From assembly GCF_016887565.1 (NCBI RefSeq), contig NZ_CP069396.1, positions 11,948,001 through 12,012,000 of the forward strand: 64,000 nt of DNA, written 5' to 3'. The stretch's first letter is position 1. The number at the start of each line of letters is the position of its first letter. Position numbers and translations under genes: made by a program. This document shows, in pieces, positions 10,401 through 53,167 of this stretch. The notes below the pieces were generated by a model that saw only the letters and a program-made list of their open reading frames with translations, had not been told where the DNA came from and did no database searches. Origin of the DNA: Archangium violaceum. Lineage in GTDB: Bacteria > Myxococcota > Myxococcia > Myxococcales > Myxococcaceae.

Positions 10401-10841
10401 CTCCTGGCAGAGGAAGACGTTCTCGGGCTTCAGATCGCGGTGGACGATTCCCTGGGCATGGACCTCCCCCATGGCGTCCGCGATCTGCGCGCCCAGGGCC
10501 ACCGTGTCCCGGAGGGATACCGGGCCTGCCTGCCGTCGCATCCACTCGCGCAGGGACAGGCCGTCCAGGTACTCCATGGCGAGAAAGGCCGTGTCTCCCT
10601 GCCGCGCCGAGTGCAGGACGCGCACGACCCCCGGATGCTGGAGCCGCTCCAGGGCCTGGGCCTCTTGCAGGAAGCGGGCAACGAGGTGCGGCTCGCGTGC
10701 CGCCTCGGGGGACAGGAGTTTGAGGGCCACACGTTGCCCCTGAGGCCCGTGTTCAGCGGCATAGACGCTTGCCATGCCCCCGCTGCCAAGCAGGTGCAAC
10801 AGCCGGTAGGGACCAACATGAGTGGGGGGGCTGGGCTCCAT
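7464..10841 (-). CDS. Kinase - STAND ATPase - TPR signalling protein
   Basis: A 1125-aa multidomain protein. Residues 10-285 are a Ser/Thr kinase: Gly loop LGSGGMASVY at 18-27, K41, HRDLKPEN at 134-141, DFG at 159-161, YMAPEQ near 191. Residues about 310-560 are a STAND-type NTPase with FFGRDEEL ahead of Walker A GPSGVGKSS (338-346) and a Walker B-like LLLVIEPLEE (422-431); this resembles the nSTAND1 group often found in conflict systems. A single membrane segment lies near 754-775, then about 300 residues of helical TPR-like repeats (AEAVRALKRPE, LGEAIQLHEQN style). The start is the ATG at 10841; the ORF runs on upstream, but the kinase domain begins here. It heads the minus-strand run that continues through sigma factor, kinase and CBASS/Cmr genes. 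Confidence 0.87.
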   Translation of the reverse strand: MEPSPPTHVGPYRLLHLLGSGGMASVYAAEHGPQGQRVALKLLSPEAAREPHLVARFLQEAQALERLQHPGVVRVLHSARQGDTAFLAMEYLDGLSLREWMRRQAGPVSLRDTVALGAQIADAMGEVHAQGIVHRDLKPENVFLCQEEGHPGYRVKLLDFGIAKLPPVAVDALGPTQVHTHESAFIGTYPYMAPEQFRSAARVDASADVYALGVMLFEMLAGRTPFVSEEPVEVLSAHVHEEPPPLQQFVPTLPGRLCAFIASMLAKEPARRPTMRRCHDMLSRPWEDDRESCPVPGLAPFTEAQAELFFGRDEELQTLLALLGELHGGQRRWLQVEGPSGVGKSSLIQAGLLPRLVQLSTWRVVCVRPGDEPIRAVARALASGPLQLKEGESAETVERLLRTGAGALRDFAAAHTPQGCRLLLVIEPLEELFTLGVAECLTLDALLSAAIEDSGSPVRLLTCVRADFLHRIEQVPALARHLSRAVRFPLLPMEPAALTQVVQGMASHAGLRLSEGLAQRMVQDARSEAGRLPLLGQALRGLWVLSGGAPLTHAHYERLGGVGGALAQQAEALLDSLGAEGRERAKWMSLSLVQIGRGVPDTRRPRSRRDVRAAGGNDERAEDVLLRLSGLSTSTSGAPAGLRLLQLSGGASDAEQRVELVHELLLYRVHSIATWIEKERTSLERQALLEAAAHGWHQAECPVEGLPTGTLLTYYLGGVAPAHVPQAEGRRESSEVASFLKAARRLERRRTFNRALLTAAAGLALLAILFYAALARHERQLAEASLQQLIDTMDEFSDDLDWKLSWLPYTLELRKERLKGFRDSLAKLTPQQRERPEVRRVAVQIIHRQADLAFHDGSLAQARQFLDEAREELDAALAERPADGRLLRLRALGHSKRGKVEQAQGNLDQARAHFAEAVRALKRPEVRTHDPVDDRRTLAVSDSELAGCELITGRLDAAAGLLDEAIQLHEQNGESYNKALLAEALGMRASVARAAGEPDAARKFLERELSLGWSSFREAPAGDQYSRWVLARVLMDVASFQVAQGQREEAEVNYKKARELGERLRDGEPPSKRFALVWLHALAGQESLTGDRDMASRLRTDRCALARDFKDKDGEDVRFRFADCP

Positions 10842-11074
10842 CGCGGGACCATGATCGCCGCTCCCGCGCTCAAGGGCAAAAGCCCTGTTCCCGGCAACGC
10901 AGAGCTTGTGGTGCGTCGAACTCTCCTTGTCCAGCGTCGTATGCCTGCTCGCTTGCTGCTCCTCCTTGCCCCACTCGCGACCCTCGCCAGGAGCACCGCC
11001 CTCCCCCCTCTTCAAGCCACTACCTCAACACCGAACTCCGGCCAGGTACTGCGGCTCGGCTGGCGCTCGTCCTC

Positions 11075-13618
11075 GTGCTCAACGCCTCTCGGCATCACGG
11101 CGAGGGGGACCGCGCGTCGTGGTCACGAAGAAGCGGTTCGTGTCGTTGTGCTCAACGCCTCTCAGCATCACTGCGAGGGGGACCCCTCATCACGCCCACT
11201 TGGAGGGGCTGGTGCTCTCGGTGCTCAACGCCTCTCAGCATCACTGCGAGGGGACCTTCCACTCGATGCCGTCGACACGCCAGCCTTCCTGGTGCTCAAC
11301 GCCTCTCGGCATCTCGGCGAGGGGGACATCTCCTGAGAGAACCAGATCAGGCGGATGGACCGGTGCTCAACGCCTCTCGGCATCACAGCGAGGGGGACCC
11401 TCCTTGGTGGTCATGTGCACCACGATGAAGTTGGGTGCTCAACGCCTCTCGGCATCTCGGCCAGGGGGACGACAGGGGCCCGGTGGTGAGGTTGAGAGCG
11501 CCGCTGTGCTCAACGCCTCTCGGCATCTCGGCGGGGGACCAACGTCTTCAACAACTCGGAGTTCGACCCCCGGGAGTGCTCAACGCCTCTCGGCATCTCG
11601 GCCAGGGGGACCTGAGCGCGTGCGGTCATCAAGCGTCGCGGCCGTTGTGCTCAACGCCTCTCGGCATCTCGGCCAGGGGGACCAGAACATGCCGTACACG
11701 GCCGACACGACTTCCATGTGCTCGACGCCTCTCGGCATCTCGGAGAGGGGGACTGACCAGAAGCTCAAGACCAAGAATGTCTATCGCAGGTGCTCAACGC
11801 CTCTCGGCATCTCGGCCAGGGAGACCAGCGGCGCGCGATGCGCGTCCCGTCAGCTCCGCCCAGTGCTCAACGCCTCTCGGCATCACAGTGAGGGGGACGA
11901 CCGGTACCGAGTACGACAACGTGGCGCTGGAGCAGTGCTCAACGCCTCTCGGCATCTCGGCGAGGGGGACTACGAGCGCGAGTGATTCAACGTCCCCGCC
12001 AACTCGTGCTCAACGCCTCCCGGCATCACGGAAAGGGGGACGACTCTCCTTCCGCAGCAACAAGTACCTCGACAGGTAGTGCTCAATGCCTCTCGGCATC
12101 ACGGCGGGGGGACCCCCGCGCGGCAGTGGTACTCTCCACCCTCGCAATAAAGTGCTCAACGCCTCTCGGCATCTCGGCCAGGGGGACGTCGCCGCATTCG
12201 CCTTCGTCGTCAACCTCGTGGGCAGGTGCTCAACGCCTCTCGGCATCACGGTGAGAGGGACTGAGGTGCTGAAGCCGAACGCGGCCACGATCGCCGAGTG
12301 CTCAACGCCTCTCGGCATCTCGGCCAGGGGGACCCGTGCGAGGACGCCTATACCTGCCGCGACTTCGCCGTGTGCTCAACGCCTCTCGGCATCACGACGA
12401 GGGAGACCAGGGCTTCACCGCGGGCGGTCCACTGGGCGCAGCGTGCTCAACGCCTCTCGGCATCTCGGCCAGGGGGACGGTCGGTGCCGGCGGGGCCATC
12501 GCCTACCAGTACCTATGCTCAACGCCTCTCGGCATCTCGGCCAGGGGGACCCCGTGACGGGCGGCAACACGCCACGGGCCTGGGCTCCGGTGCTCAACGC
12601 CTCTCGGCATCTCGGCCAGGGGGACGGAAGCAGAAGAAACTGGAGACCACGAACTACGATGAGTGCTCAACGCCTCTCGGCATCTCGGCAAGGGGGATAT
12701 CCACCCGCAGACAGCGTCGGTGCGGGAGTGGTAGTGCTCAACGCCTCTCGGCATCTCGGCCAGGGGGACAGCGCTGATGGCCGACGACTGGTGGAAGGAG
12801 TGCTCAACGCCTCTCGACATCACAGCGAGGGGGACTGGACGGCCAAGGCAGCAAGGGAGTGATGCGCGACACGCGATCAACGCCTCTCTGCATCTCGGCA
12901 AGGGATGAACAACGACCCTGGAGCCTCAAGCGTGTCGAACTGTGCTCAACGCCTCTCGGCATCTCGGTGAGGGACTCAGGAAAAGAACTCGCTGCTGAGC
13001 TTCGGCGAGATGTGCTCAACGCCTCTCGGCAAGGGGGACTTGCGTCAGGTCGGCCTGGAAGCCCTTGGTGAGGTGCTCAACGCCTCTCGGCATCTCGGCG
13101 AGGGTAACTGGAGGTGCCCAACATGCCGGCCGAGGCCTACCTGTGCTCAACGCCTCTCGGCATCTCGGCGAGGGGGACCTCGCTGCGATGGCGCACGAGA
13201 ACGCGGACGTGCGGGTGTGCTCAACGCCTCTCGGCATCACGGCGAGGGGGACTCAGTCAGCATCGGCCACAGCGAGACGAAGGAGGGCGGGGTGCTCAAC
13301 ACCTCTCGGCATCTCAGCCAAGGAGACCTTCCTTCGTCCAGGAGATGCTCGACCACCAGGAGTGCTCAACACCTCTCGACATCTCGGCTAGGGGACTTCG
13401 CGCTCCAGGCTGACGGGTGGTGGCTGCGCTCGGAGTGATCAACGCCTCTCGGCATCACGGCGAGGGGGGGAACATGAACTCTACACCGGAGGTCGTGGAC
13501 ACGGACACAAGTGATCAACGCCTCTCGGCATCTCAGCCAGGGGCACTGCTCGGTTCTACATCCTGAACCAAACGAAGCTCTAGTACTCAACGCCTCTCGG
13601 CATCTGAGCGAGGAGGTT
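11075..13618 (-). CRISPR. CRISPR array, 36 repeats and 35 spacers, strongly variable repeats
   Basis: I count 36 repeats of mostly 36 nt (starts at 11075, 11148, 11221, 11292 ... 13511, 13583) with spacers of 34-40 nt; one spacer is only 30 nt (12770-12799). On the plus strand each repeat opens with GTGCTCAACGCCTCTCGGCA and ends in GGGGGAC. The first 20 positions are nearly constant, while the next 10 vary (CATCACGGCGAGG, CATCTCGGCCAGG, CATCTCGGCGAGG and others). The repeat at 13012-13039 has lost 8 nt. Repeats near 12873 and 13435-13618 are decayed. Read on the minus strand, the constant part is a GCC-GAGA-GGC hairpin followed by the 8-nt TTGAGCAC, the layout expected for Cas6 cutting and a 5' crRNA handle, so minus-strand transcription is inferred. 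No cas1, cas2 or cas6 is in the window. Confidence 0.95.
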
Positions 13619-38295: not shown

Positions 38296-39543
38296 CTACG
38301 CCGTGGCGCGCACCGGCCCGGTGGCCTCCGCCCGCAGCCGCAGCGCCTTGGGGCCTCGGATGGAGAAGTGGTTGGTGATCTCCACCCGCTCGCGCTGGCC
38401 GGGTGCGAAGGAGAACCGGCGCCCCGGCTCGAGCAGCTCCTCCAGCGCCACCTTCGCCTCCAGCCGAGCCAGCGGCGCTCCCAGGCAGAAGTGGATGCCG
38501 TGGCCGAAGGAGACCATGCCCTGGGCATTGCGCGTCACGTCGAAGCGCTCCGGGTCCGTGTACTTCCGCGGGTCGCGGTTGGCGGACCCCAGCAGCGTCA
38601 TGACGTTCGAGCCCGCGGGGATGCGGGTGCCGGCGATCTCCACGTCCTGGAGGACGTACCGGGAGACCGCCTGCACGGGCGAGTCGTACCGCAGCATCTC
38701 CTCCACCGCGTTCGGAATCAGCGCCGGCTCCGCGGTGAGCCGCTCCAGTTGCTCGGGGTTCGACAGCAGCGCGCGCATGCCGTTGCCCAGCAGGTTGGTG
38801 GTGGTCTCGTTGCCCGCCACCAGCAGCAGCCGGCAGAAGTCGACCACGGTCTCCGCCGTGAGCACGCCCTCCTTCTCACCGTTCTCCAGCAGCGCGCTGA
38901 TGAGGTCGTCCCGCGGCTCCTTCCGGCGCGCGGCGATCACCCCCTCCAGGTAGTCCCGCATCTCCCGGATTCCCGGCTCCACGAGGGCCGGGTCTCCCCC
39001 GTTGAGCAGCACCGTGGTGGAGGCGACGGTGTCGTCGGACCAGCGCTTGAAGTCGAGCCTCCGCGCCGGCTCCACCCCGAGCATCTCCGCGATGACGATG
39101 ATGGGCAGCGGCTCGGCCAGCTCCTTCATCAGGTCGAACTCGCCCGACTCCGGCAGCTGGGAGATCAGCTCCCGGGACAGCCGCCGGATGAACGGCTCCA
39201 TGTCCGCGACGCGGCGGGGCGTGAAGGCCCGGCTGACCAGATTGCGCAGCCGCGTGTGGATCGGCGGATCCGCGGTGAGCATGCTCCCCCTGCGCAGCGT
39301 GCCCACGAGGACCGGAGCCACCGTCTCGGCCGCGGCGTACTGCTCCTCGCGCACCAGCGACCGCTTGGACGAGAAGAGGGCCGGGCTCTTCGTGACGAAG
39401 AGGACGTCCTCGAAGCGGCTGACGAGGTGGACCCGGAGCTGCTCGTTCCAATAGACGGGCGCCGTCTCCCGGAGCACCTCGTAATAGGGATAGGGATTGG
39501 CCCGGACCGTGGGCGAGAACGGATTGAAGTCGCTGGCTTGCAC
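38296..39543 (-). CDS. Cytochrome P450 (second)
   Basis: A 415-aa soluble P450. Heme loop VSFGHGIHFCLGAPLAR with C353; I-helix LLVAGNETTTNLL with the usual acid and Thr; ExxR in EEMLRYDSP; meander NRDPRKYTDPERFD. It resembles the bacterial CYP107/CYP109-like groups, which often hydroxylate fatty acids, terpenes or macrolides. The ATG at 39543 gives a normal N-terminus. It is divergent from the lanthipeptide cluster, and two inverted repeats lie 57-97 nt upstream. A role in that cluster is possible from position only. Confidence 0.95.
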   Translation of the reverse strand: MQASDFNPFSPTVRANPYPYYEVLRETAPVYWNEQLRVHLVSRFEDVLFVTKSPALFSSKRSLVREEQYAAAETVAPVLVGTLRRGSMLTADPPIHTRLRNLVSRAFTPRRVADMEPFIRRLSRELISQLPESGEFDLMKELAEPLPIIVIAEMLGVEPARRLDFKRWSDDTVASTTVLLNGGDPALVEPGIREMRDYLEGVIAARRKEPRDDLISALLENGEKEGVLTAETVVDFCRLLLVAGNETTTNLLGNGMRALLSNPEQLERLTAEPALIPNAVEEMLRYDSPVQAVSRYVLQDVEIAGTRIPAGSNVMTLLGSANRDPRKYTDPERFDVTRNAQGMVSFGHGIHFCLGAPLARLEAKVALEELLEPGRRFSFAPGQRERVEITNHFSIRGPKALRLRAEATGPVRATA

Positions 39544-39640: not shown

Positions 39641-39778
39641 GGCAGGGCAACGCGAAGAACCTGCTCGTGGGTGAAAAGAGGTATGACGGGTTGTGCGACC
39701 CAGCCAGACACACACCGGCCACTTCGGACGCACACCGCCTCCGGCCAATACAAGCTACACGGACTTAACACGAATTCT

Positions 39779-39806
39779 TTGACTGTACTGGCCTTTACTG
39801 TAGTCT
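39779..39806 (+). promoter_or_regulatory. Possible promoter of the lanthipeptide cluster
   Basis: TTGACT (39779-39784) and TAGTCT (39801-39806) are separated by 16 nt in an AT-rich stretch, 32 nt before the lanA start. The -35 box is good, the -10 box weak. Confidence 0.35.
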
Positions 39807-39837
39807 CACTTTCCAAGTACTTCCCTGGAGGTCCGCC

Positions 39838-39990
39838 ATGAACCCGCTACAGACGCAGACCCAGAAGAAGCTCGTGCTGAACAAGGAGACCCTGCGCAAC
39901 CTCCAGGGCTCCGAGGCGAAGGCCAAGAAGGACGAGCGGGTGATGAACTCCGACCTGTACACCCGCACCTGCACGCGCGCCTGCGACTGA
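39838..39990 (+). CDS. Class I lanthipeptide precursor, 50 aa
   Basis: Too short for usual ORF calling, but well supported: ATG 39838 with GGAGG 7 nt upstream, followed by LanC and LanB genes. The leader contains KKLVLNKETLRNLQ (residues 10-23), a leader motif shared by many class I precursors (L-x-L-N-K-E-T-L-R-x-L). The C-terminal core includes NSDLYTRTCTRACD (37-50). Cys45 and Cys49 with Thr42, Thr44 and Thr46 allow two consecutive T-x-x-C rings (TRTC then TRAC). LanB would dehydrate the Thr residues and LanC would close the thioether rings. The cleavage site is not obvious; no GG, GA or PR motif precedes the core. Confidence 0.85.
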   Translation: MNPLQTQTQKKLVLNKETLRNLQGSEAKAKKDERVMNSDLYTRTCTRACD

Positions 39991-40022: not shown

Positions 40023-41279
40023 GTGGAACCCTCCCCGAGTGGCGCCCCCGACCTCCCCACGAAGGGCCTGGCCCGGATGAGTCCCCCGACGACACGCTGG
40101 CGCCCCCTGCTGGTGGGTGACACGGCCGCGCGGGCCTGGGCCGCCATCGACTCCATCGCCGGGCAACTGCGCGCGCTGCCCTCCGGGCACCCGCGGGATG
40201 CGTCCCTGGCCAACGGCCACGCGGGACAGGCCCTCTTCTTCTCCCTCCTCGACACGCGGCGCCCGGGACAGGGCCACGCGGCCCACGCGGCGGCGCTGCT
40301 CGACGCGGCCACCACCGCCGTCGCGGAGACGCCCATGGAGCCCTCGCTCTACGAGGGCTTCACCGGAGTGGCCTGGGCCCTCGAGCACCTGGGGCCACGA
40401 GGCGAGGACGTGAGCGTCGACCTCGATGCGGCGCTGCTGGAGCTGCTCGGCCAGTCGCCCTGGAGCGGCGCGTACGACCTGGTGGAGGGACTGGTGGGGC
40501 TGGGCGTATACGCGCTGGAGCGGCTGGCGCGGCCCTCGGGAGCCCCGCTGCTGGAGCGCGTGGTGGAGCGGCTGGGCGAGCTGGCGCGGCCCCTCGGGCC
40601 GGGGCTGACGTGGTGGACGTCGCCCGAGTGGATGCGGCCGGGACTGCGCGCCCACCACCCGGAGGGCTGGTTCAACCTGGGCGTGGCGCATGGCGTGCCC
40701 GGCGTGGTGGGGGTGCTGGGAGCGGCCTGCGCGCACGGCGTGGCGGTGGCGAGCGCCCGTCCCCTGCTGGAGGGCGCGGTGCGCTGGCTGCTCGCGCAGG
40801 AGGAGCCCGGCGACGCGGGCGGCTTCCCTTCCTGGATGGAGCCGGGCGGTGGACGGGGGCCGGTGGCGCGCACGGCGTGGTGCTATGGCGATCCGGGAGT
40901 GGCCGCGGTGCTGCTCTCGGTGGCGAGGGCCCTGGACGTGCCGGAGTGGGAGGCGCGCGCGCTGACCATCGCGAGGCGGGCGGCGGCGCGCGTGCCGGAG
41001 CGGACGCGGGTGGCGGACGCGGGCCTGTGCCACGGCGCCGCGGGACTGGGGCACCTGCTCCACCGGGTGGCCCACACCACGGGTGACGAGGCCCTGGCCG
41101 GAGCCGCGCGGGCGTGGTTCGAACGTGCGTTGGAGCTGCGACGGCCCGTGAACGAGGACGGCCCGGGGCTGCTGACGGGCGTGACGGGGACGGGGCTCGC
41201 CCTGCTGGCGGCGGTGGGCGGAGAGGAGCCCGGGTGGGACAAGGTGCTGCTCGCCTCGCTGCCCGGCCCTCCGGCGTAG
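40023..41279 (+). CDS. Lanthipeptide cyclase LanC
   Basis: A 418-aa LanC-like protein with the alpha/alpha barrel. The zinc ligands are present: C287 in AWCYGDPG, C336 and H337 in GLCHGAAG. H223 in LGVAHGVPGVVG corresponds to the catalytic His of NisC. Repeated GxxG barrel motifs are seen (YEGFTGVAWAL, LVEGLVGLGVYAL). It catalyses Cys addition to dehydrobutyrine in the precursor. The GTG at 40023 follows AGAGG and gives the length stated; the ATG at 40077 is also possible. It begins 32 nt after the precursor and ends 1 nt before lanB. Confidence 0.93.
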   Translation: MEPSPSGAPDLPTKGLARMSPPTTRWRPLLVGDTAARAWAAIDSIAGQLRALPSGHPRDASLANGHAGQALFFSLLDTRRPGQGHAAHAAALLDAATTAVAETPMEPSLYEGFTGVAWALEHLGPRGEDVSVDLDAALLELLGQSPWSGAYDLVEGLVGLGVYALERLARPSGAPLLERVVERLGELARPLGPGLTWWTSPEWMRPGLRAHHPEGWFNLGVAHGVPGVVGVLGAACAHGVAVASARPLLEGAVRWLLAQEEPGDAGGFPSWMEPGGGRGPVARTAWCYGDPGVAAVLLSVARALDVPEWEARALTIARRAAARVPERTRVADAGLCHGAAGLGHLLHRVAHTTGDEALAGAARAWFERALELRRPVNEDGPGLLTGVTGTGLALLAAVGGEEPGWDKVLLASLPGPPA

Positions 41280-41280: not shown

Positions 41281-44200
41281 ATGGAGGACATGGGAGAACG
41301 ACCAGGCGTGCGGCCCGCGGGATTCTTCGTGCTGCGCACGCCGCTGCTGCCCCATGACGTGCTGAGGGAGTGGAGCACGGGCGCCGGGGATTCCGGAGCG
41401 CCCGGTGGGGATGACGCGACCCTGGAGGCGGCACTCGCGACGGACCGGCGGCGCACGCGCGAGCGGCTGCGCGAGGTGGTGACGCGGCCCGAGGTGCGCG
41501 AGGCCCTCTTCCTGGCCTCGCCCTCGCTGGAGGAGAGCCTCGGGACATGGTGGGAGGCGCCCGAGAGCGAGCGCGGACAGAAGGTGGAGCGGACCCTGGT
41601 GCGCTACCTGTCGCGCATGGCGGGGAGGGCCACGCCCTTCGGACTCTTCGCGGGCTGCACGATGGGCGAGCTGGGTGCCCGGACACGCCTGGTGCTGGGC
41701 CCGCTGGAGGAAGCGCGGCGGCACACCCGGCTGGACATGGACTACCTCTTCTCCCTCACCGAGACGCTGGCCTCGCGGCCGGAGTGGCGGAGGGGGCTGC
41801 GCTTCCGGCCCAACTCCAGCCTGTACCGGGTGGCGGGAAGGCTGCGGTACGCGGAGGCGCGGCGGGAGGGCCAGGCGCGCGACTACCACCTGGTGGCGGT
41901 GGAGCCGACGCTCTACCTGGAGGCCACGCTGGCTCGCGCCGCGCGGGGAGCGAGCCTGGAGGAGCTGACGGCCGCGCTGTGCGAGGCGGACGCCGAGGTG
42001 CCACGAGAGGAGGCCGAGGCCTACGTGGAAGCACTGGCGGACGCGCAGCTCCTGGTGCCGGAGCTGTCGCCAACCGTCACCGGGCCGGAGCCCATCCACG
42101 AGGTGCTGACCCAGCTGCGCCAGCTTCCCGGAGGTGAGCCCCTGGTGGAGCGGCTGGAGCAGGCGCGCGCGACGCTGGAGTCCCTGGATGGACAGGGCCT
42201 GGGCGTGCACCCGAGGCGCTACCGCGAGGTGGCGGAGCGGCTGGAGGCGCTGCCGGCCCGGCCCGCGCTGCCGCGCCTCTTCCAGGTGGACCTGGTGAGG
42301 CCGGCATCGGAGGCGGTGCTGGGCGAGGCGGTGGTGAAGGAGGTGGTGCGCGGGGTGGAGCTGCTGCGGCGGCTGGTGCCCGCCCGAGGCGGTGGAGAGG
42401 CCCTGCGACGCTTCCGCGACGCCTTCCTGGCGCGCTACGAGGGCCAGGAGGTGCCGCTGGTGGAGGCGCTGGACGAGGAGTCGGGCCTCGGTTTCGGCGG
42501 CATCTCGGATGAAGCGGAGCCGCTGTTGCGCGGGCTCGCCTTCCCCGGACGGGCACAGGAGAAACACTGGAGCGAGCGGCACGCGCACCTGCTGCGGCGC
42601 TGGGAGGAGACGCTCCGGGCGGGAAGGCGCGAGCTGGCGCTGACGGAGGAGGACGAGCGGGCGCTCGCGGTGGAGTCACCGCTGCCGCTGCCGGACGCCT
42701 TCGAGGTGCTGGCCGCGGTGGCGGCCCCCTCGGAGGAGGCACTCGCCGAGGGCCACTTCCGCCTGCACCTCGCGAGCGTGGGAGGCCCTCCGGGTGCACG
42801 GCTGCTGGGGCGCTTCTGCCACGCGGACGCGAAGTTGGAGGAAGCGATACGCAAGCACCTGCGGGAGGAGGAGGCGCTGCGCCCGGGCGTGTGCTTCGCC
42901 GAGGTGGTGCACCTGCCGGAGGGGCGGGTGGGCAACGTGCTGCTGCGCCCGGTGCTGCGCGACCACGAGATCGCGTACCTGGGGCGCTCGGGGGCACCGC
43001 GGGAGCGCCAGGTGCCGATGACGGACCTGCGGGTGTCGGTGGTGGGGAATCGGGTGGTGCTGCGCTCGGAGCGGCTGGGCTGCGAAGTGCTGCCGAGACT
43101 GACGACGGCGCACCACTATGGAGGAAGGAGCCTGGGGCTGTACCGCTTCCTGTGCTCACTGCAGGGACAAGGCGTGGCGGGGAGCCTGGGGTGGGAGTGG
43201 GGACCCCTGGAGGAGGCGGCCTTCCTGCCCCGGGTGACGGCGGGCCGGCTGGTGCTGTCGCTGGCGCGCTGGCGGGTGGAGCCGGCGGAGGTGGAACGGC
43301 TGGAGGGGCTGAGCGGGGTGGCCCGGCACCGCGAGGTACGGCGGTGGCGCGAGCGGCGGGGGATTCCGCGGCACGTGGGGCTGTCGGAGGGAGACAACGT
43401 GCTCCCGCTGGACCTGGAGGGAGAGCTCTGGGTGGACACCTTCCTGCAACTCGCGAAGGGGCACGAGACGGTGACGCTGGTGGAGCCCTTCCCCGGCGGG
43501 CACGAGCTGTGCGTGCGAGGTCCCGAGGGCCGGTACGTGCACGAGCTGGTGCTGCCCTTCACGCGGGCCCGCCCGGAGACACCGCGAGCGCGAGCCCCCC
43601 AGGACTCCCGCCCGGCGGAGCCGGCGCGGATACGGAGACGCTTCACGCCAGGCTCCGAGTGGCTGTACGCGAAGCTGTACGGAGGGAGCGCCTCGGCGGA
43701 TCGGGTGCTGCGCGAGGCGGTGGGGCCGCTCGTGCGGGAGGCGATGGGCGCGGGAATGGCGGACGGGTGGTTCTTCATCCGCTACGACGACCCGGAGCCA
43801 CACCTGCGGGTGCGCCTGCATGGAGACGCGAGGCGGCTGACGGGAGAGGTGCTGCCAGCGTTGGAAGCGCGGATGGAGCCGCTGCTGGAGGAGGGGCTGC
43901 TGTGGCGGGTGCAGCTCGACACGTACGAGCGGGAGGTGGAGCGCTACGGCGGGGGTGAAGGTGTACGGCTGGCCGAGCGGCTCTTCCACGCGGACAGCGA
44001 GGCGGTGCTGTCCATCCTGGAGGGGCTGAGCGGGGATGAGGGAGCCGAGACGCGCTGGCTGCTGGCGCTGAAGGGCGTGACGCTGCTGCTGGAGGACCTG
44101 GGGCTGGAGGCGGAGACGAGGCACGGGGTGCTGTCGCGGGCGCGCGAGGCCCTGGGACGCGAGATGCGGGTGGAGGCGGACTTCACGCACCAGCTCGGAG

Positions 44201-44508
44201 CGAGGTACCGGCAGGAGCGGGCACGCGTCGAGGCGGTGCTGCGCGGAAGCGGGACGGAGGACGGGCCCTTGTCGGCGGGGCTGGCGGCACTGGAGAAGCG
44301 CTCACGGGTGCTCGAGCCCATCACGGCGGAGCTGCGCGGATGCGCCATGGAGGGCCGGTTGGGAGTGCCGCTGGAGGAGCTGGCCTGGAGCTTCCTGCAC
44401 ATGCACGCGAACCGGCTGCTGCGCTCCTCGGCCCGGAGACAGGAATTGGTGCTCTACGACTTCCTGCTGCGCCACCTCGAGTCCATGAAGGCCCGGCGGA
44501 GGACCTGA
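41281..44508 (+). CDS. Full-length lantibiotic dehydratase LanB
   Basis: A 1075-aa class I dehydratase. Residues 1 to about 780 are the glutamylation domain, which uses Glu-tRNA to activate Ser/Thr (RYLSRMAGRATPFGLFAGCTMG and LDMDYLFSLTETL are typical). From about residue 790 the SpaB_C-like elimination domain follows (GSEWLYAKLYGGSASADRVLRE, WFFIRYDDPEPHLRVRLHGDARRL). Both halves are in one chain, unlike split thiopeptide enzymes. The start at 41281 is 1 nt after the lanC stop; ATG 41290 is an alternative. No transporter or leader peptidase gene lies next to it. A small 5-bp hairpin (44501-44514) overlaps the stop. Confidence 0.94.
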   Translation: MEDMGERPGVRPAGFFVLRTPLLPHDVLREWSTGAGDSGAPGGDDATLEAALATDRRRTRERLREVVTRPEVREALFLASPSLEESLGTWWEAPESERGQKVERTLVRYLSRMAGRATPFGLFAGCTMGELGARTRLVLGPLEEARRHTRLDMDYLFSLTETLASRPEWRRGLRFRPNSSLYRVAGRLRYAEARREGQARDYHLVAVEPTLYLEATLARAARGASLEELTAALCEADAEVPREEAEAYVEALADAQLLVPELSPTVTGPEPIHEVLTQLRQLPGGEPLVERLEQARATLESLDGQGLGVHPRRYREVAERLEALPARPALPRLFQVDLVRPASEAVLGEAVVKEVVRGVELLRRLVPARGGGEALRRFRDAFLARYEGQEVPLVEALDEESGLGFGGISDEAEPLLRGLAFPGRAQEKHWSERHAHLLRRWEETLRAGRRELALTEEDERALAVESPLPLPDAFEVLAAVAAPSEEALAEGHFRLHLASVGGPPGARLLGRFCHADAKLEEAIRKHLREEEALRPGVCFAEVVHLPEGRVGNVLLRPVLRDHEIAYLGRSGAPRERQVPMTDLRVSVVGNRVVLRSERLGCEVLPRLTTAHHYGGRSLGLYRFLCSLQGQGVAGSLGWEWGPLEEAAFLPRVTAGRLVLSLARWRVEPAEVERLEGLSGVARHREVRRWRERRGIPRHVGLSEGDNVLPLDLEGELWVDTFLQLAKGHETVTLVEPFPGGHELCVRGPEGRYVHELVLPFTRARPETPRARAPQDSRPAEPARIRRRFTPGSEWLYAKLYGGSASADRVLREAVGPLVREAMGAGMADGWFFIRYDDPEPHLRVRLHGDARRLTGEVLPALEARMEPLLEEGLLWRVQLDTYEREVERYGGGEGVRLAERLFHADSEAVLSILEGLSGDEGAETRWLLALKGVTLLLEDLGLEAETRHGVLSRAREALGREMRVEADFTHQLGARYRQERARVEAVLRGSGTEDGPLSAGLAALEKRSRVLEPITAELRGCAMEGRLGVPLEELAWSFLHMHANRLLRSSARRQELVLYDFLLRHLESMKARRRT

Positions 44509-44977: not shown

Positions 44978-47900
44978 ATGACAACCACACGAGGTCCATC
45001 CTGGTGCCGTCACGGCATGTGGATGACGGTCCTGCTGGCGGCGACTGGCTGCGGCGGACAAGCCCCTGGTAGCGAAACCGGGCTCCTGGGGAAGCTGCGG
45101 AGCGCATTGAGTGACAACGCGCCGGATCTGCGGGTGTCCGCGGTCCACGGGCCGAGCAGCGCCGTACCCGGCCTGCCCTTTTCCGTGGATGTCACCGTGT
45201 GCAACGAGGGCACCGAGACCGCCGACATCAACACCGACGTGTTCCTGTCCGAGGACGCGCTCATCCAGCCCTCCGACATGCTGCTCGCGTCCCGTCCGGT
45301 GAACCTCAAGCCCGGACAGTGCTCCACGCTCGACATGAACGTGGACATGGGCGTGAGCCAGGCGGGGAGCTACCACCTCGGTGCCATCACCGACTCCTTC
45401 GACTACGTGTCCGAGCTCAACGAGGACAACAACTCGCTCGTGGGGAACACCCTCACCGTCGACGCGAAGCCGGACCTCGTCCTCACCGCCGTCACGGGGC
45501 CCTCCCGGCGCTCTCCCTACACGCCCGACGCCCCCGTCTTCTTCACCGTCTGCAACCAGGGCCTGCCCAGTTCCAACACGAACGTGGACCTCTTCCTGTC
45601 CACGGATACGACCATCAGCCGGAACGATGATCTCTTCTTCGCCAACGTCTGGGTGGACGCACTCGCCGCGGGCGAGTGCAGGACGCAGAGCGTCCCCACC
45701 CACACTCCCCCCGAGGGCATCTTCTACCTGGGTGGCATCGTCGACCCCTTCGACTCCCTGCCGGAGATCCTCGAGGACAACAACGTCCTCGTCGGCCACC
45801 GCATGGCCATAGGCTATGGGCCGGATCTCGTCATCACCTCGGTGCAAGCGCCCGCCAGCGCGCGGCCCGGTGAGCCCCTCGGCATCAGCGCCACCGTCTG
45901 CAACCAGGGCTTCCAGCCCAGCTACTTCTCCGAGCTCGCGGTGCGCCTGTCCGACGACGCCACCGTCACCCCGGACGACCCCATGCTCGGCTTCGCCCCC
46001 GTGGGCGACCTCGACTCCGGCATGTGCGCCACCGTTTCCGTGACGGGTCCCGCCACGCCGCCCTCCGGCACCTGGTACCTGGGCACCTTCGCCGATGCCT
46101 CCCAGTTCGTCCTGGAGCTGGACGAGGCCAACAACGCCTCCGCCCCTCGCGCCATCACCTTCGGCTCCGACTCGGACCTGACCGTGTCCCTGAAGGCTCC
46201 CGCCCTCGCGCCGCCCGGAGGGTCCTTCCGCTACACCGCCACCGTCTGCAACCAGGGCACCTCTCTCGGCGAGCCGACGACCCTCGACATCCTCCTCTCC
46301 TCGGATCCCACCTTCTCCGACGACGACCTGTTGCTCGGCGGCGCTCAGGTGCCGCAGCTCGCCGCGGGGGAGTGCACGGAGCTCTCCCAGGAGATTCCCT
46401 CGTACGCCCCGCCGTCCAGCTACTTCCTCGGCGCCCGCGTGGATGGCTCCCACGGCGTGCCCGAGCTGCGCGAGGACAACAACCTCTCCAGCCCCTCCCC
46501 CTTCGTCATCGGCCAGGGAGTCGACCTCATCGTCACCTCCGTGCGCGCTCCCGCCAGCGCCCTGCCGGGCAACCCCTTCGAGGCCACCATCACCGTGTGC
46601 AACCAGGGCTCCGACCTCAGCCCCGGCGCCATGCTGGCCCTGAAGCTGGCTCCTCTCGACGTGGCCACTCCCGTGGACCTCCCCGCTGGTACCGCCTTCG
46701 TGGGCGGCCTGGCCCCGGGTGCCTGCGAGAACGTCACCGCGAGCGTTCTCCCCGACATGCCCATGCCCCTGAGCGGTGCCTGGAAGCTGCTGGCCCTCGC
46801 TGACTCCGACCACTCGGTCCCCGAGCTCATCGAGTCCAACAACTCCGCCTCCAGCAACCGCATCGGCATCAGCTACTCCGCTGACTTCGTCATCACCTCC
46901 GTCAGCGGTCCCACCCGCCTGTCCCCCTACAGCTCTCCGGACACGGTTGCCTTCGTCACCGTCTGCAACCAGGGCACCAGCAGCCAGGGTGCTCAAGCCG
47001 AGCTGTACTTCTCGCAGGATGCCTTCATCACCCTCGATGACATGATGGCCGGCAACGAGCCCGTGGGCTACCTCGACCCCGGCCAGTGCCGCACCACCAG
47101 CGTGCGCATCCACGCGCCTTCCGAGGGCACCTTCTACCTGGGCGCTCGCATCCCTCCCTTGCCCCAGGAGCTGTTCCTGGATGACAACGTCGCCATCGGC
47201 AACCTCGTGGCCATTGGCAACAAGGCCGACCTCGTCGTCACCTCGGTGCAGGCTCCCACCAGCGTCAGGCCCGGCGAGCTCGTCAGTGCCACCGCCACCG
47301 TCTGCAACCAGGGCTTCGCTCCCAGCTACTTCTCCCAGGTCGCGGTGTATCTCTCCCAGGACTCCACGGTGGACCCCACGCAGGACATGCCCATTGGCTT
47401 CGCGCCCGTGGGTCACATCGACATGGGCCAGTGCGCCTCCGCGACCGTGACGGGTACTGCCTTTCCGGCCGGTACCCACTTCCTCATCGCTTCCGCGGAT
47501 GACTCCAACCAGGTTCCCGAGCTGTACGAGGACAACAACACCTCCGCTCCTCGTGCCCTGTCCCTCGGCTCCGGCTCGGACCTGACCGTGTCCCTGCAAG
47601 CGCCCGCCGTTGCTCGGCCCGGTGAGCCTCTCAACCTCACCGCCACCGTCTGCAACCAGGGCAATGCGCTCAGCGCTCCGTCGCACGTCGACTTCCTCTT
47701 CTCCACGGACGCCACGCTCTCTCAGCAGGACGTCTTCCTGGGCGGCATCCCGGTGGATCTACTCGCCCCGGGTGCCTGCGCGACCCTCTCTCAGCAGGTC
47801 CCGGTCCCGCCCGAGAACGGCTTCCTCGGCGCCATCGTCGACGGGCCCAACGTCCTGCCCGAGCTGCGCGAGGACAACAACACCTCCGCTGCTTCCGCTC

Positions 47901-50900
47901 TCGTCACTGGCTTCGGTCCCGACCTCACCGTTACCTCGGTGAAGGCTCCTCCCAGCACCATGCCCGGCAACCCCTTCGAGGCCACCGTCACCGTGTGCAA
48001 CCAGGGCTCCGACTTCAGCCCCGGCTCCATGCTCGCCCTGAAGCTGGCTCCTCTCGACGTGGCCACTCCCGTGGAGCTCCCCGCTGGCACCTCCTTTGTG
48101 GACGGCCTGGCTCCGGGTACCTGCGAGAACGTCACCACGAGCGTCCTGCCCGACATGCCCATGCCCCTGAGCGGTGCCTGGAAGCTGTTGGCCCTCGCTG
48201 ACTCCGACCACCTCGTCTCCGAGCTCATCGAGTCCAACAACTCCGCCTCCAGCAACCGCATCGGCATCAGCTACTCCGCTGACTTCGTCATCACCTCCGT
48301 CAGCGGTCCCACCCGCCTGTCCCCCTACGGCTCTCCGGACACGGTTGCCTTCGTCACCGTCTGCAACCAGGGCACGAGCAGCGCGGGAGCCGACCTCGAG
48401 CTGTACTTCTCGCAGGACGTCTCCATCACCCGCGATGACATGATGGCCGGCAACGAGCCCGCGGGCTACCTCGACCCCGGCCAGTGCCGCACCGCCAGCG
48501 TGCGCATCCACGCGCCTTCCGAGGGCACCTTTTACCTGGGCGCCCGCGTCCGTCCCGCCCCACAGGAGCTGTTCCTGGATGACAACGTCGCCACGGGCAA
48601 CCTCGTGGCCATCGGTAACAAGGCCGACCTCGTCGTCACCTCGGTACAAGCCCCTACCAGCGTTCAGCCAGGCGAGCAGATCAGCGCCACCGCCACCGTC
48701 TGCAACCAGGGCTTCGCTCCCAGCTACTTCTCCCAGGTCGCGGTGTATCTCTCCCAGGACGCCACGGTGGACCCCACGCAGGACCTCCTCATAGACGTGG
48801 CCCCCGTGGGTGACATCGACATGGGCCAGTGCGCCTCCACGACCGTGACGGGTACCGCCTACGTTCCGGCCGGTACCTACTTCCTCGTCGCTTCCGCGGA
48901 TGAGTCCGACCAGGTTCCCGAGCTGTATGAGGACAACAACACCTCCGCTCCTCGTGCCCTGTCCATCGGCTCCGGCTCGGACCTGACCGTGTCCCTGCAG
49001 GCCCCCGCCGTCGCGCGGCCCGGCGAGCCCCTCAGCCTCACCGCCACCGTCTGCAACCAGGGCAATGCGCTCAGCGCTCCGTCGCACGTCGACTTCCTCT
49101 TCTCCACGGACGCCACGCTCTCTCAGCAGGACGTCTTCCTGGGTGGCATCCCGGTGGATCAACTCGCCCCGGGTGCCTGCGCGACCCTCTCTCAGCAGGT
49201 CCCGGTCCCGCCCGAGAATGGCTTCCTCGGCGCCATCGTCGACGGGCCCAACGTCCTGCCCGAGCTGCGCGAGGACAACAACACCTCCGCTGCTTCCGCT
49301 CTCGTCACCGGCTTCGGTCCCGACCTCACCGTTACCTCGGTGAAGGCTCCTCCCAGCACCATGCCCGGCAACCCCTTCGAGGCCACCGTCACCGTGTGCA
49401 ACCAGGGCTCCGACTTCAGCCCCGGCTCCATGCTCGCCCTGAAGCTGGCTCCTCTCGACGTGGCTACTCCCGTGGAGCTCCCCGCTGGCACCTCCTTCGT
49501 GGGCGGCCTGGCCCCGGGTGCCTGCGAGAACGTCACCGCGAGCGTTCTCCCCGACATGCCCATGCCCCTGAGCGGTGCCTGGAAGCTGCTGGCCCTCGCT
49601 GACTCCGACCACTCGGTCCCCGAGCTCATCGAGTCCAACAACTCCGCTTCCAGCAGCCGCATCGGCATCAGCTACTCGGCTGACTTCGTCATCACCTCCG
49701 TCAGCGGCCCCACTCGGCTGTCTCCCTACAGCTCTCCGGACACGGTTGCCTTCGTCACCGTCTGCAACCAGGGGGCTGCGAGCGCGGGGGCCGACCTCGA
49801 GCTGTACTTCTCGCAGGACGCCTCCATCACCCGCGATGACATGATGGCCGGCAACGAGCCCGCGGGCTACCTCGACCCCGGCCAGTGCCGCACCACCAGC
49901 GTGCGCATCCACGCGCCTTCCGAGGGCACCTTCTACCTGGGCGCCCGCGTCCGTCCCGCCCCACAGGAGCTGTTCCTGGATGACAACGTCGCCACGGGCA
50001 ACCTCGTGGCCATCGGCAACAAGGCCGACCTCGTCGTCACCTCGGTGCAGGCCCCCTCCAGTGTGCGGCCCGGCGATCCTCTCAGTCTCACCGCCACCGT
50101 CTGCAACCAGGGCTTCGAACTCAGCTACTACTCCCAGGTCGCGGTGTATCTCTCCCAGGACGCCACGGTGGACCCCACGCAGGACCTCCTCATAGACGTG
50201 GCCCCCGTGGGTGACATCGACATGGGCCAGTGCGCCTCCACGACCGTGACGGGTACCGCCTACGTTCCGGCCGGTACCTACTTCCTCGTCGCTTCCGCGG
50301 ATGAGTCCGACCAGGTTCCCGAGCTGTATGAGGACAACAACACCTCCGCTCCTCGTGCCCTGTCCATCGGCTCCGGCTCGGACCTGACCGTGTCCCTGCA
50401 GGCCCCCGCCGTCGCGCGGCCCGGCGAGCCCCTCAGCCTCACCGCCACCGTCTGCAACCAGGGCAATGCGCTCAGCGCTCCGTCGCACGTCGACTTCCTC
50501 TTCTCCACGGACGCCACGCTCTCTCAGCAGGACGTCTTCCTGGGTGGCATCCCGGTGGATCAACTCGCCCCGGGTGCCTGCGCGACCCTCTCTCAGCAGG
50601 TCCCGGTCCCGCCCGAGAATGGCTTCCTCGGCGCCATCGTCGACGGGCCCAACGTCCTGCCCGAGCTGCGCGAGGACAACAACACCTCCGCTGCTTCCGC
50701 TCTCGTCACCGGCTTCGGTCCCGACCTCACCGTTACCTCGGTGAAGGCTCCTCCCAGCACCATGCCCGGCAACCCCTTCGAGGCCACCGTCACCGTGTGC
50801 AACCAGGGCTCCGACTTCAGCCCCGGCTCCATGCTCGCCCTGAAGCTGGCTCCTCTCGACGTGGCTACTCCCGTGGAGCTCCCCGCTGGCACCTCCTTCG

Positions 50901-53167
50901 TGGGCGGCCTGGCCCCGGGTGCCTGCGAGAACGTCACCGCGAGCGTTCTCCCCGACATGCCCATGCCCCTGAGCGGTGCCTGGAAGCTGCTGGCCCTCGC
51001 TGACTCCGACCACTCGGTCCCCGAGCTCATCGAGTCCAACAACTCCGCCTCCAGCAGCCGCATCGGCATCAGCTACTCCGCTGACTTCGTCATCACCTCC
51101 GTCAGCGGCCCCACTCGGCTGTCTCCCTACGGCTCTCCGGACACGGTTGCCTTCGTCACCGTCTGCAACCAGGGCACGAGCAGCGCGGGGGCCGACGCCG
51201 AGCTGTTCCTCTCACAGGCTGACTCCACCTCCGGCGATGACATGCCCATTGGGTACGACCCCGTGGGCGACCTCGACCCCGGCCAGTGCCGAACCGCCAG
51301 CGTGCACATCGGTGGCATGCCCTCCGAAGGTACCTTCTACCTGGGCGCCCACGTCCGTCCCGCCCCGCAGGAGCTGTTCCTGGATGACAACGCCGTCATC
51401 GGCCACCGCGTGACCATCGGCTCCAGGCCCGACCTCGTCGTCACCTCGGTGCAGGCCCCCGCCAGCGTGCAGCCCGGCGCCCCGCTCGATGCCTCGGCCA
51501 CCGTGTGCAACCAGGGCACCACGCCCAGCTACTACTCCAACGTCGAGGTGCTCCTGTCCCCGGATACCGACGTGAACAAGCACGAGGACTTCCGCGCGGG
51601 CGTCATCCCCGTCGGCATGCTCGAGGCGAGCCAGTGCACCACGGTCCGACTGACGGACTCGGTCCCGCTTCCCTCGGGCACCTGGTACCTGGCCGCGCTC
51701 GCCGATGCCTCCGAATATGAGCCGGAGCTGGACGAGGACAACAACCTCTCCGACCTCGGTGTCCTGGTGGTGGGTCTGGGCGCGGACCTCACCGTGTCCG
51801 TCGACACGCCCACCAGCGCCCGGCCTGGCATGAACTTCGACGTCCTCGCCACCGTGTGCAACCAGGGCACCGCGCCCTCTCAGCACTCCCACGTCGACGT
51901 CGTGCTGTCCTCGGATGAGACCCTCACCCAGTCGGACTTCCTCCTCGGTGGGGCGCCGGTGGAGCCGCTCGCCCCGGGGGCGTGCACCTCGCTCTCCGTG
52001 ACGACCTCCGCCTCGCAGCCCGAGGGCATCTGGTTCCTCGGCGCCATCGTCGACGGGCCCAACGCCCAGCCCGAGCTGCGCGAGGACAACAACGCCTCCA
52101 CGGCCTCTGTCTTCGGCCTCGGCCAGGGACCCGACCTCGTCGTCACCTCGGTGCAGGCGCCCACCGCGAGCCACCCGGACACCACCTTCCCGGCCACGCT
52201 CGAGGTGTGCAACCACGGCACCGCGCCCAGCCCCTCCACCCAGGTGGAGCTGAAGCTGGCCGCGCAGGGCCTGGGCTCTCCGGTGGAGCTGCCCGCGGGC
52301 ACCGCCCCCGTGGGGCCCCTGGCACCGGGTGCCTGTGAGAACGTCGCCGCGAACGTCGCCGCCGCCGTGCCCATGGGGACCTGGAAGCTCCTCGCGCTCG
52401 TGGACGCCCAACACTTCGTCCCCGAGCTCGTCGAGTCCAACAACTCGGCGTCCAGCCAGCGCATCGGCATCGGCTACGCGCCCGACTTCGTCATCACCTC
52501 CGTCGAAGCCCCGGCGCTCATCTCGCCGTGGGAGGGCGCCACCGTCCACATCACCGTCTGCAACCAGGGCTCCGACTCCGGCGCGGGCGCTCCCGACATC
52601 GGGGTGATGCTCTCGCAGGACGCCTCCATCACGCGCAACGACATGCACCTCATGAGCGTTCCCGTGAACGACCTGCCGCCCGGCGAGTGCCGGACGGTGG
52701 ACGCGGCCATCGACTCGACGCCCGAGGGCACCTTCCACCTGGGAGCCATCCTCACCGTCTGGATGCCCGAGCTCTTCCGGGACAACAACACCGCCGTCGG
52801 CCCTCGCGTGGTCATCGGCGCCAGGCCGGAGCTCGTCGTCACCTCGGTGCAGGCTCCCACCAGCGTCCAGGGAGGCGGGGTCTTCACGAGCGCCGTCAAC
52901 GTCTGCAACCAGGGCTTCGACTTCAGCAACCCCACGAACGTGGAGGTGCGGCTGGCGGGCCAGGAGCCCGAGAGCCTGCTCGTGGGCAACGCGATCGTGC
53001 CCGAGCTCGAGCCGGGTCACTGCCAGACGGTCTCCGTGGAGTCCCAAGCCAACGTCCCTCCGGCGGCGTACACGCTGGAGGCCGTGGTGGATCCCCACAA
53101 CCAGGTGTGGGAGCTGCTGGAGGACAACAACCGTGGGACGGGTCACACCGTCACGGTGACGAACTAG
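44978..53167 (+). CDS. Giant CARDB-repeat lipoprotein, 2729 aa
   Basis: A surface-type lipoprotein. The N-terminus has a signal with lipobox AATGC (about residue 25), then 23 domains of roughly 115-118 aa. Each domain has a V-C-N-Q-G motif (once VCNEG, once VCNHG), a D/E-D-N-N near its end, and an aliphatic start such as DLVVTSVQAP. This pattern fits the CARDB (cell adhesion related) Ig-like family. The domains cycle as four subtypes A-B-C-D (see the repeat entry). Each domain has a second Cys in a GxC segment, so a disulfide per domain is likely. No C-terminal anchor or sorting signal is seen. The likely role is adhesion or a stalk on the cell surface. ATG 44978 has TTGGAG upstream; the gene is preceded by 469 nt of empty sequence and ends at a strong hairpin. 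Confidence 0.85.
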   Translation: MTTTRGPSWCRHGMWMTVLLAATGCGGQAPGSETGLLGKLRSALSDNAPDLRVSAVHGPSSAVPGLPFSVDVTVCNEGTETADINTDVFLSEDALIQPSDMLLASRPVNLKPGQCSTLDMNVDMGVSQAGSYHLGAITDSFDYVSELNEDNNSLVGNTLTVDAKPDLVLTAVTGPSRRSPYTPDAPVFFTVCNQGLPSSNTNVDLFLSTDTTISRNDDLFFANVWVDALAAGECRTQSVPTHTPPEGIFYLGGIVDPFDSLPEILEDNNVLVGHRMAIGYGPDLVITSVQAPASARPGEPLGISATVCNQGFQPSYFSELAVRLSDDATVTPDDPMLGFAPVGDLDSGMCATVSVTGPATPPSGTWYLGTFADASQFVLELDEANNASAPRAITFGSDSDLTVSLKAPALAPPGGSFRYTATVCNQGTSLGEPTTLDILLSSDPTFSDDDLLLGGAQVPQLAAGECTELSQEIPSYAPPSSYFLGARVDGSHGVPELREDNNLSSPSPFVIGQGVDLIVTSVRAPASALPGNPFEATITVCNQGSDLSPGAMLALKLAPLDVATPVDLPAGTAFVGGLAPGACENVTASVLPDMPMPLSGAWKLLALADSDHSVPELIESNNSASSNRIGISYSADFVITSVSGPTRLSPYSSPDTVAFVTVCNQGTSSQGAQAELYFSQDAFITLDDMMAGNEPVGYLDPGQCRTTSVRIHAPSEGTFYLGARIPPLPQELFLDDNVAIGNLVAIGNKADLVVTSVQAPTSVRPGELVSATATVCNQGFAPSYFSQVAVYLSQDSTVDPTQDMPIGFAPVGHIDMGQCASATVTGTAFPAGTHFLIASADDSNQVPELYEDNNTSAPRALSLGSGSDLTVSLQAPAVARPGEPLNLTATVCNQGNALSAPSHVDFLFSTDATLSQQDVFLGGIPVDLLAPGACATLSQQVPVPPENGFLGAIVDGPNVLPELREDNNTSAASALVTGFGPDLTVTSVKAPPSTMPGNPFEATVTVCNQGSDFSPGSMLALKLAPLDVATPVELPAGTSFVDGLAPGTCENVTTSVLPDMPMPLSGAWKLLALADSDHLVSELIESNNSASSNRIGISYSADFVITSVSGPTRLSPYGSPDTVAFVTVCNQGTSSAGADLELYFSQDVSITRDDMMAGNEPAGYLDPGQCRTASVRIHAPSEGTFYLGARVRPAPQELFLDDNVATGNLVAIGNKADLVVTSVQAPTSVQPGEQISATATVCNQGFAPSYFSQVAVYLSQDATVDPTQDLLIDVAPVGDIDMGQCASTTVTGTAYVPAGTYFLVASADESDQVPELYEDNNTSAPRALSIGSGSDLTVSLQAPAVARPGEPLSLTATVCNQGNALSAPSHVDFLFSTDATLSQQDVFLGGIPVDQLAPGACATLSQQVPVPPENGFLGAIVDGPNVLPELREDNNTSAASALVTGFGPDLTVTSVKAPPSTMPGNPFEATVTVCNQGSDFSPGSMLALKLAPLDVATPVELPAGTSFVGGLAPGACENVTASVLPDMPMPLSGAWKLLALADSDHSVPELIESNNSASSSRIGISYSADFVITSVSGPTRLSPYSSPDTVAFVTVCNQGAASAGADLELYFSQDASITRDDMMAGNEPAGYLDPGQCRTTSVRIHAPSEGTFYLGARVRPAPQELFLDDNVATGNLVAIGNKADLVVTSVQAPSSVRPGDPLSLTATVCNQGFELSYYSQVAVYLSQDATVDPTQDLLIDVAPVGDIDMGQCASTTVTGTAYVPAGTYFLVASADESDQVPELYEDNNTSAPRALSIGSGSDLTVSLQAPAVARPGEPLSLTATVCNQGNALSAPSHVDFLFSTDATLSQQDVFLGGIPVDQLAPGACATLSQQVPVPPENGFLGAIVDGPNVLPELREDNNTSAASALVTGFGPDLTVTSVKAPPSTMPGNPFEATVTVCNQGSDFSPGSMLALKLAPLDVATPVELPAGTSFVGGLAPGACENVTASVLPDMPMPLSGAWKLLALADSDHSVPELIESNNSASSSRIGISYSADFVITSVSGPTRLSPYGSPDTVAFVTVCNQGTSSAGADAELFLSQADSTSGDDMPIGYDPVGDLDPGQCRTASVHIGGMPSEGTFYLGAHVRPAPQELFLDDNAVIGHRVTIGSRPDLVVTSVQAPASVQPGAPLDASATVCNQGTTPSYYSNVEVLLSPDTDVNKHEDFRAGVIPVGMLEASQCTTVRLTDSVPLPSGTWYLAALADASEYEPELDEDNNLSDLGVLVVGLGADLTVSVDTPTSARPGMNFDVLATVCNQGTAPSQHSHVDVVLSSDETLTQSDFLLGGAPVEPLAPGACTSLSVTTSASQPEGIWFLGAIVDGPNAQPELREDNNASTASVFGLGQGPDLVVTSVQAPTASHPDTTFPATLEVCNHGTAPSPSTQVELKLAAQGLGSPVELPAGTAPVGPLAPGACENVAANVAAAVPMGTWKLLALVDAQHFVPELVESNNSASSQRIGIGYAPDFVITSVEAPALISPWEGATVHITVCNQGSDSGAGAPDIGVMLSQDASITRNDMHLMSVPVNDLPPGECRTVDAAIDSTPEGTFHLGAILTVWMPELFRDNNTAVGPRVVIGARPELVVTSVQAPTSVQGGGVFTSAVNVCNQGFDFSNPTNVEVRLAGQEPESLLVGNAIVPELEPGHCQTVSVESQANVPPAAYTLEAVVDPHNQVWELLEDNNRGTGHTVTVTN
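45125..53164 (+). repeat. 1.4-kb four-domain tandem super-repeat within the CARDB gene
   Basis: A-type domains begin at 45125, 46523, 47921, 49322, 50723 and 52133, giving steps of 1398, 1398, 1401, 1401 and 1410 nt. Each step holds four CARDB domains. The units from 47921, 49322 and 50723 are nearly identical over long stretches; for example the segments near 49065-49343 and 50466-50744 encode identical peptides in all read frames. The outer units (from 45125 and 52133) have diverged. This indicates recent unequal crossing-over in the centre. Confidence 0.9.

What the first reader, a model, noticed from the sequence alone, without database searches (positions are those of the whole stretch)
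39838..39990. Tiny lanthipeptide with tandem TRTC-TRAC rings
The core end YTRTCTRACD allows two adjacent four-residue rings of the same size, each with an Arg inside. This is a very small class I lanthipeptide with basic rings, and I do not recognise it as a described compound. Lack of a Ser/Thr-rich core makes the prediction testable.
Basis: partly seen in the sequence, partly recalled or inferred. Interest (0 to 1): 0.75.

Follow-up and report, generated by a model that had tools for sequence, protein, structure and literature searches.

The report
Small class I lanthipeptide, two rings
A myxobacterium-type genome carries a compact three-gene operon that most likely makes a very small ringed (lanthionine) peptide; the gene set is a known kind, and its two-ring end resembles the tail of the known antibiotic lacticin 3147, so it is a testable new member rather than a new system.

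Summary
At 39838-39990 (+) a 50-aa ORF with a good Shine-Dalgarno site ends YTRTCTRACD, the only TxxCTxxC in six frames of the window. It matches NCBIfam lant_leader_L1a at the cut-off, has the published LxLxKx5L class I leader motif, and is followed by a LanC (40077-41279) and a full-length LanB (41281-44508) with catalytic motifs present. A second species of the genus keeps the locus, with a 98% identical precursor gene and an identical core; LanB and LanC show purifying selection. A class I lanthipeptide precursor is well supported. The ring topology (Thr42-Cys45, Thr46-Cys49) is most likely but inferred.

The novelty claim is only partly right. Two abutting four-residue MeLan rings are the classical C-terminus of class II two-peptide beta-components (CPTxxC[T/S]xxC); lacticin 3147 A2 ends TTKCTRAC, sharing CTRAC. 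Here the pair sits in an unrelated class I precursor with no GG leader, LanM, alpha partner, transporter or protease nearby. A family of 48-49 aa myxobacterial class I precursors has a similar [ST]xxC-T-x(n)-C-[DE] plan, but an HMM and the LanB/LanC trees do not show that the window peptide belongs to it. New member of a known kind.

The parts
39765..39792 (+). upstream block identical in the sister species (TTAACACGAATTCTTTGACTGTACTGGC), candidate promoter region
   Evidence: pairwise DNA alignment; a sigma-70 consensus scan found no + strand site, so promoter role is inference
39827..39831 (+). Shine-Dalgarno GGAGG, 6 nt before the ATG
   Evidence: sequence; identical in sister species
39838..39990 (+). 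lanthipeptide precursor gene (LanA), 50 aa
39871..39903 (+). leader motif LVLNKETLRNL (residues 12-22) = LxLxKx5L class I leader motif
   Evidence: sequence; NF038153 hit residues 7-23; motif described in PMC7268733
39961..39972 (+). predicted ring A, Thr42-Arg-Thr-Cys45
   Evidence: sequence; topology inferred from known abutting TxxC-TxxC rings
39973..39984 (+). predicted ring B, Thr46-Arg-Ala-Cys49, followed by C-terminal Asp50
   Evidence: sequence; topology inferred
40077..41279 (+). LanC cyclase (400 aa from ATG 40077; the 40023 GTG frame is not conserved in the sister species)
   Evidence: PF05147 E 4e-37; NisC and 8byk matches with VAHG/LAHG/LSHG, WCYG and CHG motifs; start
41281..44508 (+). 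full-length LanB dehydratase, 1075 aa (glutamylation and elimination domains)
   Evidence: PF04738 and PF14028; matches MibB 5ehk, 9g04 and NisB 4wd9 with RxTPFGLF, ExERYGG and HxxxNRL motifs
38296..39543 (-). divergently transcribed cytochrome P450; membership in the cluster uncertain
   Evidence: PF00067; kept next to the operon in G005 only; absent from the other LanB/LanC loci examined

Best explanation
A minimal class I lanthipeptide operon, lanA-lanC-lanB. LanB binds the LxLxKx5L leader, glutamylates Thr side chains of the C-terminal core with Glu-tRNA and eliminates glutamate, giving dehydrobutyrines. The zinc cyclase LanC then adds Cys45 to Dhb42 and Cys49 to Dhb46, giving two abutting four-residue methyllanthionine rings, each with one Arg, at the C-terminus; Thr44 may stay as Dhb or Thr. 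Leader removal and export must use proteins encoded elsewhere, because none lie beside the operon. Shown here: the genes, domain content, conserved catalytic motifs, conservation in a second species and purifying selection on the enzymes. Inferred: dehydration, ring topology, cleavage, export and activity. The most likely role is a small secreted bioactive peptide whose ring pair copies the C-terminal end of lacticin-3147-type beta-peptides by convergence; the target is unknown.
For: Leader family at cut-off and LxLxKx5L motif. Adjacent LanC and full LanB with both dehydratase domains. Catalytic motifs aligned with NisC, NisB, MibB and 9g04. Ortholog with identical core and 98% identical precursor DNA, dN/dS about 0.2 for LanB and 0.4 for LanC. 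LanB/LanC homologues elsewhere are also accompanied by short LxLxKx5L Cys/Thr precursors. TxxCTxxC is unique in the window. Abutting four-residue MeLan rings are precedented.
Against: No transporter, protease or immunity gene beside the operon. No clear cleavage site; GG is absent. T44 and S38 allow other topologies (for example T44-C49). The leader hit is only at the cut-off, and the six-frame scan gives 21.5 bits, just below it. No expression or mass data.
Confidence: 0.75

Rival explanations
1. It is a class I lanthipeptide but with a different topology, for example an overlapping or larger ring (T44-C49, T42-C49 or S38-C45), with other Thr residues left as Dhb.
For: S38, T42, T44 and T46 all precede a Cys and could be dehydrated; PMC10885120 cites a class I study from Pedobacter reporting an unusual ring pattern (reference title only).
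Against: T42-C45 and T46-C49 are the simplest local pairing and match the known beta-peptide pattern; [ST] at -3 and Thr at +1 of the first Cys recur in other compact myxobacterial precursors.
Confidence: 0.2
2. The divergent P450 at 38296-39543 is part of the pathway and further oxidises the peptide (for example at Tyr41 or Arg).
For: Directly adjacent and sharing the upstream region; the P450 ortholog in G005 is 87% identical and next to the operon, while the best match in the other same-genus genomes is about 56%.
Against: In G005 the flanking region is conserved as a whole (STAS-like, ABC and DUF6665 genes too), so linkage is not specific; no P450 at the other LanB/LanC loci examined; divergent orientation; the genome holds other P450s of this type.
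Confidence: 0.12
3. The window peptide is a member of the compact myxobacterial TSPxCT precursor family, sharing by descent the plan [ST]xxC-T-x(n)-C-[DE].
For: 16 distinct precursors of that family and the two window-type peptides match the plan; none of the other about 33 LxLxKx5L precursors does; shuffled window cores match in 0.3%. Similar length and leader.
Against: The template was drawn after seeing the peptides. An HMM of the family without the window peptides does not rank them above other precursors, full length or core only. LanB and LanC trees do not place the window enzymes in that clade. Its precursor genes are divergent from lanC, the window's is co-directional.
Confidence: 0.25
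4. The short ORF is a chance ORF or decayed precursor and LanB/LanC act on something else.
For: Leader score only at the cut-off.
Against: 98% identical gene in a second species, stronger conservation than flanks, good SD site, position directly upstream of lanC, unique TxxCTxxC.
Confidence: 0.03

Closest known systems
Class I lanthipeptides with LxLxKx5L leaders (NCBIfam lant_leader_L1a; Walker et al. 2020, PMC7268733)
   Same: Leader motif, separate LanC and full LanB, short Cys/Thr core
   Different: No GG site and no C39 transporter/protease nearby, which many Bacteroidetes members have; very short core with only two Cys
Two-peptide lantibiotic beta-components (lacticin 3147 A2, lichenicidin beta, vagococcin T beta; class II)
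   Same: C-terminal pair of abutting four-residue TxxC-TxxC rings; CTRAC shared letter for letter with lacticin 3147 A2
   Different: Those are made by LanM, have GG-type leaders, an upstream Cys-Pro and further rings, and an alpha partner; none of this is present here
Nisin/gallidermin rings A and B (SxxxCTP(G/S)C)
   Same: Two abutting rings with Thr directly after the first Cys; class I enzymes
   Different: First ring five residues in nisin, four here; no Pro-Gly in ring B; nisin leader has FxLD
Compact myxobacterial precursors of 48-49 aa with cores such as ELTSPICTDYGTKCDL (found here)
   Same: Length, leader, LanB/LanC partners, [ST]xxC followed by Thr, acidic residue after the last Cys
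   Different: Pro in ring 1, longer second ring, no TxxCTxxC, divergent gene order, separate LanB/LanC clade
Known myxobacterial lanthipeptides (boletupeptin from Melittangium boletus; the peptide of Wang et al. 2023)
   Same: Myxobacterial origin, lanthipeptide
   Different: Boletupeptin's source study is cited for class III (LanKC) clusters (PMC12328550); the Wang et al. paper could not be read

Membership tests
Class I lanthipeptide cluster | Full-length LanB with glutamylation and elimination domains | tested here: met
   PF04738 and PF14028 in one 1075-aa protein; conserved motifs versus NisB, MibB and 9g04
Class I lanthipeptide cluster | Stand-alone LanC cyclase with zinc ligands (Cys, Cys-His) | tested here: met
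   PF05147; WCYG and CHG motifs aligned with NisC
Class I lanthipeptide cluster | Precursor with class I leader motif and Ser/Thr plus Cys core | tested here: met
   NF038153 at cut-off; LxLxKx5L
Class I lanthipeptide cluster | (Methyl)lanthionine in the product | not testable with these tools
   needs expression and mass spectrometry
Two-peptide lantibiotic beta-peptide (lacticin 3147 type) | CPTxxC[T/S]xxC C-terminal motif | tested here: not met
   window core YTRTCTRACD has TxxCTxxC but no preceding Cys-Pro, and has an added Asp (motif from PMC9431498)
Two-peptide lantibiotic beta-peptide (lacticin 3147 type) | LanM enzyme, GG leader and alpha partner in the cluster | tested here: not met
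   only LanB/LanC and one precursor at the locus
Nisin-type lipid II binder | SxxxCTP(G/S)C motif | tested here: not met
   sequence; motif from PMC7268733
Compact TSPxCT myxobacterial precursor family | Detected by an HMM of the family built without it | tested here: not met
   window peptides rank among unrelated LxLxKx5L precursors; not in the top hits of the core-only search
Compact TSPxCT myxobacterial precursor family | LanB and LanC inside the family's clade | tested here: inconclusive
   placed outside; backbone weakly supported and one origin not ruled out (the LanB tree is the quick version)

The most novel reading that the evidence does not exclude
A class I, myxobacterial lanthipeptide that consists of little more than the isolated two-ring end of a lacticin-3147-type beta-peptide, evolved independently, and that acts alone without an alpha partner, dedicated exporter or protease, possibly as a signal rather than an antibiotic.
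Probability: 0.25. Interest if true: 0.55.

Novelty: new member of a known kind. Interest (0 to 1): 0.36.

Why it matters
If the product is made as predicted, it would be a very small class I lanthipeptide and a natural test of whether the TxxC-TxxC ring pair of beta-peptides has a function of its own. I found no characterised class I lanthipeptide from myxobacteria in the papers searched, though most subscription papers are not held. The three-gene operon is compact and suited to E. coli co-expression.

Tried and rejected
Family HMM test of homology with the TSPxCT precursors: negative, so I do not claim it. The template match is post hoc. LanB tree: the careful search did not finish, so the quick tree was used. 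P450 as a core cluster member: no support outside the sister species. Promoter scan: no + strand sigma-70 site. Own-genome search with NF038153 found no second precursor of this type. The Pedobacter ring-pattern paper is not held. A survey of conserved Myxococcota clusters does not mention lanthipeptides. Structure prediction was not run, since the folds of LanB and LanC are clear from sequence and a 50-aa modified peptide would not be informative.

Full report
What is there. The ORF at 39838-39990 (+) reads MNPLQTQTQKKLVLNKETLRNLQGSEAKAKKDERVMNSDLYTRTCTRACD. It starts 6 nt after GGAGG. It matches NCBIfam NF038153, class I lanthipeptide leader L1a, at 22.0 bits with a cut-off of 22; the six-frame genome scan gives 21.5 bits. 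Residues 12-22 fit the LxLxKx5L class I leader motif reported by Walker et al. (PMC7268733). TxxCTxxC occurs only here in six frames of the window and in 1 of 272 short ATG ORFs.

Partners. LanC lies at 40077-41279 and LanB at 41281-44508. LanC matches PF05147 (E 4e-37) and LanB matches PF04738 and PF14028 over nearly their full length. The sequence alignments to solved structures show the LanC motifs AHG, WCYG and CHG against NisC and 8byk, and the LanB motifs RxTPFGLF, ExERYGG and HxxxNRL against NisB and in part MibB and 9g04. That these are the catalytic regions is established knowledge of NisB and NisC, not tested here. The listed GTG start of LanC at 40023 is unlikely: in the sister species the extended frame holds a stop and the alignment is well conserved from ATG 40077 on. 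No transporter, protease or immunity gene lies next to the operon. The neighbours are a divergent P450 and a 2729-aa protein with CARDB repeats.

Conservation. The window lies in a single-contig 13.2-Mb genome. Of five other genomes of the genus searched, one (G005) has the whole region. Precursor DNA is 98% identical and the last 15 residues are identical; upstream DNA diverges much more. dN/dS is about 0.21 for LanB and 0.37 for LanC; the precursor has too few changes for a ratio. P450 orthologs are likewise confined to these two genomes at this identity, so the P450 may be linked by synteny alone.

Relatives. LanC homologues were found in 19 of 98 related genomes and in other phyla, mostly beside a LanB. 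Many are accompanied by short precursors with the same leader type. A search with an alignment of compact precursors recovered about 20 peptides of 48-50 aa in three genera, with cores such as ELTSPICTDYGTKCDL and ATTPVCTEYGPRCEL. Most of these and the window peptides fit [ST]xxC-T-x(n)-C-[DE] near the C-terminus; other LxLxKx5L precursors do not. I treat this as a resemblance only: the template was made after the fact, an HMM of that family without the window peptides does not pick them out, and the LanB and LanC trees leave the window enzymes outside that clade with weak backbone support. The strict leader-plus-TxxCTxxC-[DE] DNA pattern occurs in 2 of 195 genomes of the phylum, the window genome and G005; that pattern also fixes some codon positions, so it is a conservative count.

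Known counterparts. Two abutting four-residue MeLan rings are not new. PMC9431498 gives CPTxxC[T/S]xxC as typical of all two-peptide beta-peptides. PMC5487065 gives bridges 25-28 and 29-32 for lichenicidin beta. The lacticin 3147 precursor listed in PMC11476732 ends TNTCPTTKCTRAC, so CTRAC is shared with the window peptide. Those are class II products of LanM with GG leaders and an alpha partner. The window peptide meets none of those other features and is therefore not a member; convergence is the likely reading, and a five-residue match can also be chance.

Mechanism. Shown: genes, domains, motifs, conservation. Inferred from established class I chemistry: LanB dehydrates Thr by glutamylation and elimination, and LanC closes Cys45 onto Dhb42 and Cys49 onto Dhb46. 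T44 and S38 leave other topologies open. Leader removal is probably by a protease encoded elsewhere, for which PMC10885120 gives precedents in other RiPPs. Activity is unknown.

Verdict. Observation confirmed; interpretation partly supported; a new member of a known kind with a ring pair known from another class.

Noticed in passing
L068 (G000:C1:2262000-2280000), 6759-12719 (-): A second LanB/LanC pair in the same genome is preceded by a radical SAM/SPASM protein close to nif11-class maturase 3 (TIGR04103, 620 bits, cut-off 725) and a short ORF with TVRGG and a C-terminal SPTKTPTTK; the ortholog in G005 (L069) has a different C-terminus. Possible LanB+LanC+radical SAM hybrid RiPP.
   Followed up: partly
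L075 (G000:C1:7682000-7698000), 5526-8633 (+): A third full LanB in the genome, about 40% identical to the window LanB, with no LanC match nearby in the stretch fetched.
   Followed up: no
L044, 2946-6702 and 6817-7014: An Acidobacteria contig with three consecutive LanC homologues next to a precursor with a Cys/Thr-rich repetitive core (CTGACTAGTIACTACTAACTACTAGC).
   Followed up: no
L052, 4019-5515: An Acidobacteria contig with six tandem class I precursors of similar sequence upstream of LanC/LanB.
   Followed up: no
window 44978-53167 (+): A 2729-aa protein, with CARDB repeats matched in its first 841 residues (the part scanned), follows lanB directly; also present after the operon in G005.
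   Followed up: no
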